Positions 14,332-58,398 of a stretch of 64,000 bases of DNA are shown piece by piece. This stretch comes from Bacillus sp. THAF10. GTDB taxonomy: Bacteria > Bacillota > Bacilli > Bacillales > Bacillaceae_I. Under the pieces are notes generated by a model. It was not told where the DNA came from and searched no databases. It saw only the letters and a program-made list of their open reading frames with translations. Within the stretch, counting starts at the first letter, position 1. The number at the start of each line of letters is the position of its first letter. Where the stretch lies: assembly GCF_009363695.1 (NCBI RefSeq), contig NZ_CP045403.1, positions 724,001-788,000 on the forward strand, written 5' to 3'. The translations under genes were made by a program, and so were the position numbers.

Positions 14332-15462
14332 ATGAATATAAGATGGTTTGTGAGTATCCTTTTAACAATCGTTTTACTCGGAACAGGAACTTTCGGATAT
14401 TTTTATATAAAAAAGAACCTGCCAGCTCAGCTTACGGCTTCTTCTAATCTTTATTTAGAGTCACAGGTGGAGGAGGCAAAAGCAGTCCCGCAGGCGTTAA
14501 AGGAAATTATTTTTGAATCGCAAAAGCTTGTCGTAAAAATAGAGCTACCTGATGGCTCGTTTGGCTCAGGGTTTCTCTATAATCAAAAAGGCGATGTGGT
14601 TACAAACGCCCATGTTGTTGCAAATGCAAAGGATGTAAAGGTCACAACCGCAGACTCCAAGGAATTACAGGGACAAGTAATCGGGATAAGCAATGACACA
14701 GACATCGCCGTGGTGCGTGTGCCGGAGCTTGAAGAAACGGAGCCGTTTAAGCTTGCCAAAACTAGAAAAGCAGAGCTTGGTGATGATGTGATTGCACTCG
14801 GAAGCCCACTTGGTCTCCAAAATACCGTTACAACTGGAATCATTAGCGGAACAGGCAGAGCGTTTGAAATTGACGCCTTTAAATATGAGGACCTATTCCA
14901 AATTTCTGCACCAATTGCACCAGGTAACAGTGGAGGACCTTTAATTGATGCGAAAACGGGGGAAGTGGTAGGAATCAATTCTGCTACCATGGACCAAGGA
15001 ATTATTGGTTTTAGTATTCCGTTAGTAAATGTCCTTTCTCTCATTGAAAACTGGTCAGAGTCACCAATGGAAACACTGCCTCGTATTGGAGCTAATAATA
15101 CTGGTAGTGGTGGCGAGGAAGCATCAACAAACGCAGACATCGCAGAATATCTTGTAAACTACTTTTATGAGAGCATTAACTATCGCGACTATGTAACTGC
15201 CTATTCCTTACTCGGTAGCAGCTGGCAATCCAAGACAGCCTATGAGGATTTCCGTTCAGGCTATCTCGATTTCCTAACGATTGAAGTGGATGATTTATTG
15301 TCTCGAGAAGCAGGCCAAAATGTCGAGGTCATTACGGTCATCACGGCTCAGGAGCGCTCTGAAAATGGCGTTTCCTACGAGCAATTTAAGGTCACGTTTG
15401 AACTAGGTTTGGAAAACGATCAAATGAAAATTCTCTCAGAAAAGCGAGAGCCGATGGAATAA
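14332..15462 (+). CDS. Membrane-anchored trypsin-like serine protease with NTF2-like tail
   Basis: A 376-residue protein. One N-terminal membrane helix (about 5-25) is followed by an S1C (HtrA-type) protease domain with His94 (TNAHVV), Asp124 (NDTDIAVV) and Ser200 (GNSGGP). There is no PDZ domain. Instead, after a Gly/Ser linker, residues about 262-370 form a compact alpha/beta domain resembling the NTF2-like tail of TcaA-type proteins. The active site would face outside. The coupling to the upstream zinc-ribbon membrane protein suggests a common envelope role. Confidence 0.88.
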   Translation: MNIRWFVSILLTIVLLGTGTFGYFYIKKNLPAQLTASSNLYLESQVEEAKAVPQALKEIIFESQKLVVKIELPDGSFGSGFLYNQKGDVVTNAHVVANAKDVKVTTADSKELQGQVIGISNDTDIAVVRVPELEETEPFKLAKTRKAELGDDVIALGSPLGLQNTVTTGIISGTGRAFEIDAFKYEDLFQISAPIAPGNSGGPLIDAKTGEVVGINSATMDQGIIGFSIPLVNVLSLIENWSESPMETLPRIGANNTGSGGEEASTNADIAEYLVNYFYESINYRDYVTAYSLLGSSWQSKTAYEDFRSGYLDFLTIEVDDLLSREAGQNVEVITVITAQERSENGVSYEQFKVTFELGLENDQMKILSEKREPME

Positions 15463-15464
15463 GA

Positions 15465-15510
15465 AGAGAACTGTCGGGAAAGTTGTTGCTTTCCCGACAG
15501 TTCTTTTTTT
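15465..15510 (+). terminator. Intrinsic terminator of the zinc-ribbon/protease operon
   Basis: GAACTGTCGGGAAAG with CTTTCCCGACAGTTC and eight T. Confidence 0.95.
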
Positions 15511-15569
15511 ACAAAAGAGTATTTGAGCTCTCATTATTTATGAATGCATGGACGACTATGCCAACGGGT

Positions 15570-15703
15570 GGTTGTTGCGGAAAAAAGGATGGCGACAATG
15601 GAGGTGGCTGGCTCGTTGTGGTTGTCGCGGAAAAGGGGGAATCGCGACAACGGAGGTAGTAGGTCCGTTGTGGTTGTCCCGGAAAAGGAAGAATCGCGAC
15701 AAC
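15570..15703 (+). repeat. Palindromic repeat array, three units of 30-32 nt with 20-nt spacers
   Basis: Units at 15570-15599, 15620-15651 and 15672-15703 begin GGTTGTCGCGG (with variants) and end CGCGACAAC, forming a hairpin around a purine-rich loop. The spacers at 15600-15619 and 15652-15671 are both exactly 20 nt and closely related (both start GGAGGT and end CGTTGT). The array lies between two convergent genes. It has the same 52-bp architecture as the arrays at 17003 and 58296. Confidence 0.85.
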
Positions 15704-15724
15704 CAAGCAGTCTTTTACCAAAAA

Positions 15725-16132
15725 CTATAAAGCTATCACTCTACGCACACCACTTATTCGTTTTTTCCATTGGTTGCTTAGAGGAGCAAGAGACACCTTT
15801 TTTTCCACACGTGAGGTATGGAGCATCGTGTTGTTTCCGATGAAAATAGCTACATGACCAATTTTGGCATTGCCTTTTAGATTCTTTCTTTTTGATGTTG
15901 TAAAAAAGAGTAGGTCCCCCTTGCGGACAGAGTCGAGCGGAATCGGTTTTCCAGTGAGATATTGCTGGCGGGAGGTCCGAGGAAGAAGAATGCCATGTTG
16001 GGCATATACATATTGTACAAAGGAGCTGCAATCAAACGTATCTGATCGACCACTCGGAGCACCAAAAGTGTATGGTGTTCCTATAAAGCTTCTTCCTGTA
16101 TCTATTATTTTTTTTGATAGGGAGGAATTCAT
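15725..16132 (-). CDS. C40 family (NlpC/P60) peptidase without signal peptide
   Basis: A 135-residue single-domain protein. The catalytic Cys is in FDCSSFVQYVY, the His in IGHVAIFIG and the third polar residue is near MLHTS. NlpC/P60 enzymes cleave gamma-D-glutamyl-diamino acid bonds in peptidoglycan peptides. Unlike LytE, LytF or CwlO relatives it has neither a signal peptide nor LysM or other wall-binding repeats. It may therefore act on recycled muropeptides in the cytosol or in the spore or mother cell; that is inference. GAAAGGA precedes the ATG. Confidence 0.88.
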   Translation of the reverse strand: MNSSLSKKIIDTGRSFIGTPYTFGAPSGRSDTFDCSSFVQYVYAQHGILLPRTSRQQYLTGKPIPLDSVRKGDLLFFTTSKRKNLKGNAKIGHVAIFIGNNTMLHTSRVEKKVSLAPLSNQWKKRISGVRRVIAL

Positions 16133-16228
16133 GGTAGGGTCCTTTCAAATTGTTTTGATATATTAGTAGATGACGGTAGGTTTTGAAATGCTTGGACTTT
16201 TTACACTTTTTTTGGAGGGGAAGCTTAC

Positions 16229-17023
16229 ATGGGGGCAAAGGAGAAATTTTTACACTATCTTGGGGTTACTGAAAAATCACCAAGTATTACATATCTGAAT
16301 GAATTAATTTATGCCCATCAGTTTAAAGTTAGGTGGGAAACATGGACAAAATTCTTGGACTTTGAAGAGCTTGAGGAAAAAGATTTCTATCTTCCAAGTA
16401 TCGACGACTACGTAGAGCGGGTTGTCTCAACTGGTACCGGAGGCACGTGTTGGACGCTTGCCCGTGGCTTTCATTTTTTGTTGTCAGAACTTGGTTTTGA
16501 TGTAGAGTATCTGTACATGAAGCCTGGACACTTATGCCTTCAAGTAACTCTAGATCAAGCATACTATGTGGATGTTGGCTATTGTGCTCCGCTATACAAA
16601 GCATATCCGCTTCGTGAATCATTCACTGTGGTAACGGAAATGGAAATTTTCCGCTATCAGGTAGACGGTAAGGAGGTCTTGGTAGAACGGGAGCCAGGAC
16701 CAACTAAAACATTAAGCTTGCACCCTGTTAGTTGGGAGGAAATGAAAAAGCCCTTGCTAGAATCCCATAACTGGACAGACGGATTTGCGTTTCAATCCTT
16801 ACGTATGTTTGGTTATATAGAAGGGGAGCCGATTCAGTTGAGAGATAGTGCCATTCGCCGTTTTAAGAATCAAGCTATCAAGGAAGAGGCGCTGTCACCT
16901 GAAGAACTGCGGTTTTGGATTGAGGAGAAATTCCAATCAGACTACACATTATTTGAACGTGCCGCTGAAATAAAAAAGATCAGGATTAATAAAGAAGAGG
17001 GTGGAGGTCTTCATAGAAGGTGA
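16229..17023 (+). CDS. Arylamine N-acetyltransferase family protein
   Basis: A 264-residue protein with the NAT triad in order: Cys in GTGGTCWTLARGF (near residue 75), His in KPGHLCLQV, and Asp in YYVDVGYCAP. Family enzymes transfer acetyl groups from acetyl-CoA to arylamines or related amines. The loop around the Cys differs from the classical RGGxCxExN (Glu and Asn replaced), so activity on standard substrates is uncertain. GGAGGGG precedes the ATG. The last few codons are formed by the first unit of the 52-bp tandem repeat, so the array extends into the coding end. Confidence 0.82.
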   Translation: MGAKEKFLHYLGVTEKSPSITYLNELIYAHQFKVRWETWTKFLDFEELEEKDFYLPSIDDYVERVVSTGTGGTCWTLARGFHFLLSELGFDVEYLYMKPGHLCLQVTLDQAYYVDVGYCAPLYKAYPLRESFTVVTEMEIFRYQVDGKEVLVEREPGPTKTLSLHPVSWEEMKKPLLESHNWTDGFAFQSLRMFGYIEGEPIQLRDSAIRRFKNQAIKEEALSPEELRFWIEEKFQSDYTLFERAAEIKKIRINKEEGGGLHRR

Positions 17024-18071
17024 ATGAGGACAATCCACCGGAAAAATCATGAGAGGAAGTCTTCATAGAAGGTGAATGAGGACAACCCACCGAGAAAACC
17101 AAGAGAGGAAGTCTTCATAGAGGGTGAATGAGGACACCCCACCGGAAAAACCAAGAGAGGAAGTCTCCATAGAGGGTGAATGAGGACAACCGACAGAGAA
17201 AACCAAGAGAGGAAGTCTTCATAGAGGGTGAATGAGGACAACCGACAGAGAAAACCAAGAGAGGAAGTCTTCATAGAGGGTGAATGAGGACAACCGACCG
17301 GAAAAATCATGAGAGGAAGTCTTCATAGAGGGTGAATGAGGACAACCCACCAGAAAAATCATGATTGGAAGTCTTCATAGAAGGTGAATGAGGACAACCC
17401 ACCGGGAAAACCGAGAGAGGAAGTCTTCATAGAAGGTGAATGAGGACAACCCACCGAGAAAACCGAGAGAGGAAGTCTTCATAGAAGGTGAATGAGGACA
17501 ACCCACCGGGAAAAGCTAGAGAGGAAGTCTTTATAGAGGGTGAATGAAGACAACCCACCGAGAAAACCAAGGGTGGAAGTCTTCATAGAGGGTGAATGAA
17601 GACAACCCACCGGAAAAACCAAGAGAGGAAGTCTTCATAGAAGGTGAATGAGGACAACCCACTGGGAAAAGCAAGAGAGGAAGTCTTCATAGAGGGTGAA
17701 TGAGGACAACCCACCGAGAAAACCAAGAGAGGAAGTCTTCATAGAAGGTGAATGAGGACAACCCACCGAGAAAACCAAGAGAGGAAGTCTTCATAGAAGG
17801 TGAATGAGGACAACCCACCGGGAAAACCAAGAGAGGAAGTCTTCATAGAGGGTGAATGAGGACAACCGACCGAGAAAACCAAGAGAGGAAGTCTCCATAG
17901 AAGGTGAATGAGGACAACCCACCGGGAAAACCGAGAGAGGAAGTCTCCATAGAGGGTGAATGAGGAGAACCCACCGAGAAAACCAAGGGTGGAAGTCTTC
18001 ATAGAAGGTAAAACAACCCACCGAGAATTGTAAGCGAGGTAGTCCCCCATCGAAGACGAATGGGGACTACC
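17003..18071 (+). repeat. 52-bp tandem repeat array, 20 in-phase units plus a diverged unit
   Basis: Unit starts are exactly 52 nt apart from 17003 to 17991 (19 intervals with no indels). The 20th unit is 5 nt short, and a diverged 21st unit starts at 18038. Each unit contains GTCTTCAT and ATGAGGAC (ATGAAGAC in at least two units), an 8-bp hairpin around AGAAGGTGA. The remaining 20 nt form a constant spacer (CCACCGAGAAAACC...). The 21st unit has different stem bases, GTAGTCCCC and GGGGACTAC, which still pair perfectly. Minus-strand open frames here only reflect lack of stops. Confidence 0.93.
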
Positions 18072-18172
18072 ATACCTAAAACTAAGGCTTAGTGTCCCCA
18101 TACATTCTATAGGTAGTTAATTGAAGGCTTTTTGTTAATTACTTTACAAACGTCCATTTTCCTTACTAACAT

Positions 18173-18928
18173 TTACCCTTTCTTTTTAATAAACCCACCA
18201 AGCACTGTCATCACTAAAATCACCGCCGCCAGAGCATAGGCCACATAGGAAACCTCGCTATACTCCGCCATATTTTTTACTCCAATTCCAATAAAAGCCC
18301 AGACGAATACGAGAGGATATAGCCAATCATCATTGGACATTCGGAACCAAACAGCTAATAATGTTGCCACAACCAGCATGATTACCGTCCAAGTAACAGC
18401 TGACAATCCGAAGCCATCCCAGCCAAGCTCCACTAATACATAGCTAATGTTTGCAATCGTCGCGACACTAATCCAGCCGAGGTAAATTGAAAAGGTTGCA
18501 AGATCCAGCTTGCCAGGGTTAGAAGCGCGCATTTTTAGATAAAGCGCAATGAGGGTGCACAAAAGTCCAACCATCACTGCAACGGTGGTCACCCAAAATC
18601 CATAATGCCATAGTACGACCCAGGCACTGTTTAACAAACAGCTTAAAACAAAGAGGCTGCTTGTATTCACATAGATTGGGAGGTTTCTACGCGATTTCGG
18701 TATTTGGCGGATAATCCAAATTCCAAGCAAAAGGTAAATCAAGCTCCAAATAGAAAAAACATAGCCAGCTGGTTGAAAGAGTACGGTAATTCGATTTGCG
18801 ATGTCCCCTGTTGTCAAGCCGTTTAAAGGTAAAGCGTTCGCAAGGTAGTTCACTACAATCATCAAGACAAAAGCCAAGATATTTAATAGAAGTCTCGCCA
18901 CTAGCAACACCCCTTTCTTATACTTCAT
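18173..18928 (-). CDS. TspO/MBR-related (tryptophan-rich sensory) membrane protein
   Basis: A 251-residue very hydrophobic protein with about eight membrane segments. Residues near 53-65 (FQPAGYVFSIWSL) and tryptophans placed along the helices resemble the TspO/MBR group annotated as tryptophan-rich sensory proteins. It is longer than typical five-helix TspO (~160 residues), with additional C-terminal helices. A ligand or signalling role is unproven. AAAGGAATAGT precedes the ATG. It is divergent from the flippase gene. Confidence 0.65.
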   Translation of the reverse strand: MKYKKGVLLVARLLLNILAFVLMIVVNYLANALPLNGLTTGDIANRITVLFQPAGYVFSIWSLIYLLLGIWIIRQIPKSRRNLPIYVNTSSLFVLSCLLNSAWVVLWHYGFWVTTVAVMVGLLCTLIALYLKMRASNPGKLDLATFSIYLGWISVATIANISYVLVELGWDGFGLSAVTWTVIMLVVATLLAVWFRMSNDDWLYPLVFVWAFIGIGVKNMAEYSEVSYVAYALAAVILVMTVLGGFIKKKG

Positions 18929-22859: not shown

Positions 22860-22931
22860 TGGGAGATAATTAATCCGCTTTTTGTATAATTAATCCAACT
22901 TTTCAATAATTGATCCACTTTAGCGATTATT
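22860..22931 (+). repeat. About 20-bp periodic repeats, left part (split by IS copy 1)
   Basis: Successive units of the form ATTAATCCGCTTTTTGTATA, ATTAATCCAACTTTTC and ATTGATCCACTTTAGCG, each about 20 nt. The array resumes at 24418 after the IS element (TTTAATCCACTTTTTC). Confidence 0.7.
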
Positions 22932-41927: not shown

Positions 41928-42003
41928 ACATTTGGCTGATAAATCGCAAAAGTGGCTGAAAAAGTAGCCGTTTTGGCTGATAAATCGCAAAAGTGGCTGA
42001 AAA
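41928..42003 (+). repeat. About 41-bp tandem repeats, left part (split by IS copy 2)
   Basis: Two copies of TTGGCTGATAAATCGCAAAA followed by GTGGCTGAAAAAGTAGCCG. The array continues at 43490 after the IS element. Confidence 0.9.
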
Positions 42004-43401: not shown

Positions 43402-43489
43402 CAACCAAGCGCAAGCGCGGTAGAAGATTAAAATAATGAGATAACCCTAGTAAATAGTAGTATGTGTCCAAACTTAGGGGGTTGAACCG

Positions 43490-43735
43490 AAAAATAGCCG
43501 TTTTGGCTGATAAATCGCAAAAGTGGCTGAAAAAGTAGCCGTATTGGCTGATAAATCGCAAAAGTGGCTGAAAAGTAGCCGTATTGGCTGATAAATCGCA
43601 AAAGTGGCTGAAAAAATAGCCGTTTTGGCTGATAAATCGCAAAAGTGGCTGAAAAAGTAGCCGTATTGGCTGATAAATCGCAAAAACGGCTGATAAATGC
43701 CAAGTTTGGCTGATATTCCAACGGCTACCTGAAAA
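43490..43735 (+). repeat. About 41-bp tandem repeats, right part
   Basis: Five further copies of GGCTGATAAATCGCAAAA separated by GTGGCTGAAAAAGTAGCCGT, with units of 40-42 nt because of A-run length changes, ending in degenerate pieces. Three overlapping minus-strand open frames here reflect the repeat, not genes. Confidence 0.9.
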
Positions 43736-58295: not shown

Positions 58296-58398
58296 GCGAC
58301 AACATGGAGGGAAATCCCAAGGTGGTTGTCGCGAAAAGGGGTGAATCGCGACAACTAAGCCTCGAACTCACCTAAGTTGTCGCGAACAAGCGATAAGC
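58296..58398 (+). repeat. Palindromic repeat array with 20-nt spacers
   Basis: A right half-unit (GCGACAAC ending 58303), a full 32-nt unit (58324-58355, arms GTTGTCGCG and CGCGACAAC) and a left half-unit (GTTGTCGCG at 58376). They are separated by two spacers of exactly 20 nt with different sequences. Same unit as at 15570-15703. Confidence 0.85.

What the first reader, a model, noticed from the sequence alone, without database searches (positions are those of the whole stretch)
15570..18071. A hairpin repeat family with fixed 32 + 20 nt architecture at several loci and covarying stems
Seen: three loci (15570-15703, 17003-18071, 58296-58398) are built from about 32-nt palindromic units separated by exactly 20 nt, giving a 52-bp period. 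The units align over their length (GG-N2-GTC ... GGTGAAT-N3-GACAAC), yet the stem bases differ: GTTGTCGCG/CGCGACAAC, GTCTTCAT/ATGAGGAC and GTAGTCCCC/GGGGACTAC. Pairing is kept each time, which is compensatory change. Inference: selection acts on the RNA or DNA hairpin and its spacing, not on primary sequence. I know of no named Bacillus repeat with this build.
Basis: partly seen in the sequence, partly recalled or inferred. Interest (0 to 1): 0.82.

Follow-up and report, generated by a model that had tools for sequence, protein, structure and literature searches.

The report
52-bp hairpin satellite arrays in Sutcliffiella
These are tandem DNA repeats between genes with an almost fixed 52-base unit that often folds into a hairpin; the class was already described in Bacillus but is unexplained, and the new comparisons show where the arrays sit, which way they point, and that the 52-base length outlasts the sequence.

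Summary
Locus A has 3 units, B about 19 plus an end hairpin, and C one intact unit with two half units, all in a 52-bp register. The genome holds seven further arrays. Related arrays occur in other Sutcliffiella and in Robertmurraya, Neobacillus and others.

The class is in print: 52-nt and 20-21-nt repeats of constant size and variable sequence in Bacillus, B. horikoshii included (PMC8161180). So this is a new member of a known, unexplained kind.

Added here: 446 of 510 unit spacings are exactly 52, with loops of 7 or 9 nt. Stems covary, but not strictly. G-U and A-C mismatches are about equal, so no sign of RNA-strand selection. The purine-rich strand is the leading strand at 29 of 35 loci. 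Eight of 49 arrays follow rRNA operons. At one orthologous site different species carry different 52-bp families, some mostly without a hairpin. No RAYT gene examined is flanked by these repeats. The likeliest mechanism, DNA-level arrays phased at five helical turns and bound by an unidentified protein, is inferred.

The parts
15570..15703 (+). Locus A: three hairpin units (15570-15599, 15620-15651, 15672-15703) in a 52-bp array
17003..18009 (+). Locus B: 19.4 tandem 52-bp units, each a hairpin of about 32 nt plus a 20-nt spacer
18038..18071 (+). Locus D: single strong hairpin that ends array B, with the family's loop but a different stem
58296..58384 (+). Locus C: one intact unit (58324-58355) between half units at 58296-58303 and from 58376, all in a 52-nt register
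14332..15462 (+). Gene upstream of locus A (trypsin-like peptidase domain)
15460..15511 (+). Inverted repeat followed by a T-run after that gene (terminator-like); locus A lies beyond it
15725..16132 (-). NlpC/P60 gene, convergent on locus A
16229..17023 (+). N-acetyltransferase gene (Pfam Acetyltransf_2) upstream of locus B; its stop codon lies in the first array unit
18173..18928 (-). Gene convergent on locus B (no Pfam match)

Best explanation
The loci are members of the known 52-nt tandem-repeat (satellite) class of Bacillus. Shown: the unit is held at 52 bp while its sequence drifts, covaries and is even replaced at the same site; arrays sit between genes; the purine-rich strand is usually the leading strand. 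Fifty-two bp is five turns of B-DNA at 10.4 bp per turn (the turn value is general knowledge). Inferred: palindromes repeated on one face of the helix form a DNA-level docking array for an unidentified chromosome-binding protein, which is close to the nucleoid idea of Subirana and Messeguer. Also inferred: copy number changes by slippage or unequal recombination, conversion keeps each array uniform, and replication polarity affects which orientation lasts. I put class membership near 0.95 and the DNA-docking mechanism near 0.4.
For: Spacing 52 in 446 of 510 pairs, 51 in 37, 53 in 5; loop 7 (201 of 215) and loop 9 (245 of 293) both keep 52. In a 464-kb sample of the genome 15 of 19 non-coding arrays of period 18-70 have period 20-21 or 51-52. 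Two-sided stem changes exceed controls. A significant palindromic stem, mostly of unlike sequence, is present in 17 of the 27 published 52-nt-class consensuses listed in the paper's Table 1 (13 of 21, 4 of 6). G-U 255 against A-C 308 in stems, 38 arrays richer in G-U and 47 in A-C of 106, as expected if neither RNA strand is selected. Direction agrees with replication at 27 of 35 independent loci by family model and 29 of 35 by purine-rich strand. Two loci, each in two genomes, follow replication against both flanking genes. Different 52-bp families at one orthologous site.
Against: No binding protein was sought or found. Two 52-bp families mostly lack a significant palindrome, so the palindrome cannot be the only thing read. 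Loops of 7 and 9 nt would turn a two-armed protein site by about 70 degrees. Arrays of three turns (about 31 bp) were not seen, which helical phasing alone does not explain. Nine of 49 arrays run against replication by the family model; three arrays in tandem-gene contexts (G002:4082076, G013:2196210, G015:2973595) run against both genes and replication, and G015:2385724, near the terminus, runs with its genes against replication. B. coagulans repeats are transcribed (PMC8625621, passages).
Confidence: 0.5

Rival explanations
1. Neutral or selfish satellite. Arrays grow and shrink by replication slippage or recombination; hairpin-forming, phased units are merely those that slip or survive best, and there is no host function. 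Polarity would come from orientation-dependent stability on the lagging-strand template.
For: Copy number and family differ between species at the same site, and many genomes lack an array there. Repeat families are patchy: G014 has a single weak match. Palindromes are dispensable.
Against: It does not by itself explain why unit length stays at 52 while sequence and loop length change, or why 20-21 and 52 are preferred.
Confidence: 0.28
2. RNA element: arrays are transcribed as 3' extensions or small RNAs, and the RNA hairpins act on mRNA stability or bind a protein such as Hfq.
For: Two-sided stem changes. Arrays commonly lie downstream of a gene. Published RNA-seq shows transcription in B. 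coagulans (PMC8625621, passages).
Against: G-U is no commoner than A-C in stems. The eight arrays after rRNA operons lie past a T-run in the printed sequence. Two loci run antisense to both neighbours. No Rfam family at gathering score in the window or in any array.
Confidence: 0.17
3. REP/BIME-type repeats mobilised by a RAYT (Y1 transposase).
For: Palindromic and intergenic; each of the 16 genus genomes has a Y1_Tnp match, one only a fragment.
Against: In 21 Y1_Tnp neighbourhoods the family hairpin is not beside the gene; the four loose pattern hits are more than 700 bp away and do not look like units. The own RAYT is flanked by a different GGGAC repeat. G014 has the gene but a single weak repeat match. 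No conserved GTAG or CGTC tag in 51 consensuses.
Confidence: 0.03

Closest known systems
52-nt tandem repeats of Bacillus (Subirana and Messeguer 2021, PMC8161180; parts 1-4 of 5 and passages read)
   Same: Unit of 51-53 nt with constant size and variable sequence, several families per genome, mostly non-coding, 20-21-nt repeats alongside. A B. horikoshii family (22_52_12) has the same arms; B. coagulans 8_52_18 and B. litoralis 42_52_9 have similar hairpins with loop AAGGGTG.
   Different: The words hairpin, palindrom and orientation do not occur in that main text; it does say that signals and their reverse often share a unit and shows RNA folds. Polarity, covariation counts and family replacement at orthologous sites are added here.
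STAR elements of staphylococci (PMC3532100; part 1 of 5 and passages read)
   Same: Intergenic arrays of about 50-nt units with locus-specific spacers; function unknown.
   Different: Defined by a 14-bp GGCCC motif with 40-44-nt spacers; mostly one to seven copies; the motif is not in these units.
REP/BIME elements with RAYTs (PMC3733652, passages; BIME details recalled)
   Same: Short palindromes in intergenic DNA, sometimes in clusters.
   Different: No conserved tag, no RAYT flanked by the repeat, fixed 52-bp register in direct orientation.

Membership tests
52-nt tandem repeats of Bacillus (PMC8161180) | Repeat unit of 51-53 nt, constant within a genome | tested here: met
   488 of 510 spacings are 51-53
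52-nt tandem repeats of Bacillus (PMC8161180) | At least four repeats in an array | tested here: met
   B has 19.4 copies; A and C alone would fall short
52-nt tandem repeats of Bacillus (PMC8161180) | Several families of one size and different sequence in a genome | tested here: met
   Main family, and L273 and L277 arrays in the same genome
52-nt tandem repeats of Bacillus (PMC8161180) | Not coding for amino-acid repeats | tested here: met
   Unit not a multiple of three; arrays lie between genes
REP/BIME with RAYT | RAYT gene flanked by its repeat | tested here: not met
   0 of 21 neighbourhoods
REP/BIME with RAYT | GTAG or CGTC tag at one end | tested here: not met
   No such conserved tag in 51 consensuses
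STAR element | Motif T(G/A/T)TGTTG(G/T)GGCCC(C/A) | tested here: not met
   Absent from the aligned units (by reading, no separate search)
CRISPR array | Unique spacers between repeats | tested here: not met
   Spacers are near copies within each array; cas genes were not searched
Known structured RNA (Rfam 15) | Score at or above a family's gathering score | tested here: not met
   0 matches in the window; only sub-threshold matches at 15500-18150

The most novel reading that the evidence does not exclude
A chromosome-wide system of phased docking sites in which the fixed five-turn register and the replication polarity, not the sequence, are what selection keeps. A protein or an alternative DNA structure reads palindromes on one helical face; stems may be swapped as long as pairing and register are kept, so whole repeat families replace each other at the same site between species.
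Probability: 0.25. Interest if true: 0.82.

Novelty: new member of a known kind. Interest (0 to 1): 0.48.

Why it matters
The 52-nt satellites of Bacillus have no known function, and constant length with free sequence is an open puzzle. These results narrow it: they favour a DNA-level over an RNA-level constraint, give a polarity, show that unit length persists where the hairpin does not, argue against the RAYT route, and give paired occupied and empty orthologous sites for genetic tests.

Tried and rejected
RAYT mobilisation: disfavoured. Rfam: no family for the arrays (matches in array loci were rRNA, tRNA, riboswitches and a ribosomal-protein leader). Plasmid or phage carriage: no match for 218 bases of array B. 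A common upstream gene function: none seen in 20 upstream proteins (EF-Tu, agmatinase, FabF, transporters, regulators; six had no family). Plain blastn of locus A found only A, C and one decayed copy (L004), so a covariance model was needed. A first pattern gave no match, not even to the window. My idea that all 52-bp arrays need a hairpin failed.

That all 52-bp families share one origin is only partly supported (66 comparisons, 100 shuffles each): the main family joins its variant and locus A; family 2 joins the L083 and L121 arrays; L273 joins L124 and L277; links between these groups are weak.

Limits. The 51 units came partly from a pattern that fixed the core, so core conservation is inflated; only the outer stem and the free central pair test covariation fairly, and relatedness was not modelled. 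In some searches only the best 150 first-look candidates per genome were scored, and only 16, so counts are lower bounds. The 49 arrays come from a listing cut at 150 rows. One search removed duplicate arrays only when their first two units were identical. Gene calls are longest reading frames. The control outside Bacillaceae had 2 arrays in 291 kb and says little; the other two groups there (74 of 82, 9 of 10) were chosen for having arrays. Of the published consensuses, I first tested 21 and, on checking, the other 6. Literature: ten searches; the class came up. PMC6749651 was seen only in a listing, and the 2020 J. Bacteriol. paper only in a reference list.

Full report
What is there. The window is 724001-788000 of a 4,087,834-bp single-contig genome. 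Locus A (15570-15703), B (17003-18009, 19.4 copies) and C (around 58324-58355) share a 52-bp register, and D (18038-18071) ends array B.

The family. A covariance model from eight window units gave 142 matches in the genome at E up to 1, in the window loci and in seven further arrays near 827, 994, 1057, 2395, 3849, 3951 and 3985 kb. They are on the + strand in the first 1.06 Mb, apart from one weak opposite-strand duplicate, and on the - strand from 2.39 Mb on. With this model 14 of 41 genomes matched at E up to 0.05, 11 of them of the 16 in the genus. A second model from 51 array consensuses matched 5 of 5 genus genomes given, G014 by one weak match, and 65 of 397 genomes of the order. Named arrays with a period of 51-53 occur in S. 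horikoshii and S. rhizosphaerae, Bacillus sp. CHD6a, RO1 and OV166, Robertmurraya, Neobacillus and Alkalihalobacillus macyae.

Register. In 106 arrays and 635 units the start-to-start spacing is 52 in 446 of 510 pairs, 51 in 37 and 53 in 5; loops of 7 and 9 nt both keep 52. In 464 kb of the genome (20 stretches of 20 kb plus the window, which was not drawn at random) 15 of 19 non-coding arrays of period 18-70 have period 20-21 or 51-52.

Pairing. On 51 array consensuses 62 of 765 cells change on both sides against 34.7 in shuffles and 5 to 26 when slid; 32 change on one side, and 141 are unpaired, mostly in the outer columns. The number of pairs with a two-sided change (8) is less striking (6.4 in shuffles, 26 of 500 as high). 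Within single arrays stems switch together, for example ATTGTC/GACAAT, GTGTC/GACAC and AGGTC/GACCT in L236 (read). Against strict pairing, the central pair is Watson-Crick in 278 of 616 units, and G-U (255) is no commoner than A-C (308). Among published 52-nt-class consensuses from other species 17 of 27 have a stem better than shuffled sequence at p below 0.05 (13 of 21; 4 of 6); the B. horikoshii consensus itself has p 0.095. In my own set it is 81 of 91 main-family units, 1 of 11 of family 2, 1 of 9 of the variant at the array-B site, and 13 of 20 unclassified.

Place and direction. In five genomes with dnaA located I examined 49 arrays: 40 agree in direction with replication (12 of 17 convergent, 26 of 30 tandem, 2 of 2 scored divergent). 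Merging orthologous loci, 27 of 35 agree by family model (p = 0.002) and 29 of 35 by purine-rich strand (p = 0.0001); outside the terminus third of the map (0.4-0.6) it is 23 of 28 by family model. Two loci, each present in G015 and G002, follow replication against both neighbours; the neighbours were confirmed by Pfam in both genomes for one and in G015 for the other. Three arrays (G002:4082076, G013:2196210, G015:2973595) oppose both genes and replication, and G015:2385724 follows its genes against replication; some of these score weakly or lie near the terminus. Eight of 49 arrays lie about 180-370 bp after a 5S gene, past a T-run. One lies between EF-Tu and a ribosomal-protein leader.

Turnover. 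Downstream of speB in 16 genomes: the window's genome has the main family; six others have family 2 in tandem at 52 bp; one more is cut by its contig end after about two units; four have other short repeats by eye; four have none evident. At the array-B site: main family in the window's genome, a variant with a changed 3' arm in seven, remnants by eye in one, no array in seven. Site and unit length thus outlast sequence and hairpin.

Known or new. Subirana and Messeguer describe 52-nt and 20-21-nt tandem repeats in Bacillus with constant size and variable sequence, list a B. horikoshii family with the same arms, and suggest nucleoid binding or small RNAs (PMC8161180, parts 1-4 of 5 and passages). 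B. coagulans repeats are transcribed (PMC8625621, passages). The kind is known and its function open. This is a new member, with polarity, covariation counts and site-level turnover as added evidence; the paper's main text does not contain the words hairpin, palindrom or orientation, and its supplements and the 2020 paper were not seen.

Noticed in passing
window 22866-22921, 41933-42000, 43489-43715: Tandem repeats with periods of 20 and 41 bp, the second size class of the same published phenomenon.
   Followed up: partly
window 16229-17023: The N-acetyltransferase frame takes its stop codon from the first array unit; in 13 of 15 relatives the match ends at residue 250-255 and in 2 at 256 of 264.
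   Followed up: partly
L001:1071-1096 and 2030-2055: The genome's one Y1_Tnp (RAYT-like) gene is flanked by copies of a different palindromic GGGAC/GTCCC repeat.
   Followed up: partly
L253, L257, L261, L264: A 43-bp tandem repeat containing GGGTCAGACCC (or its complement) lies on several stretches fetched around RAYT-like genes of relatives.
   Followed up: no
L089, L108, L112, L120, L150: An uncultured Olsenella carries single-copy hairpins with TTGTCATCAT and ATGATGACAA arms followed by CCCTGTCACC, apparently an unrelated palindromic repeat.
   Followed up: no
L236, L237, L273: 20-21-bp repeats and 52-bp arrays often lie side by side in the same intergenic region.
   Followed up: no
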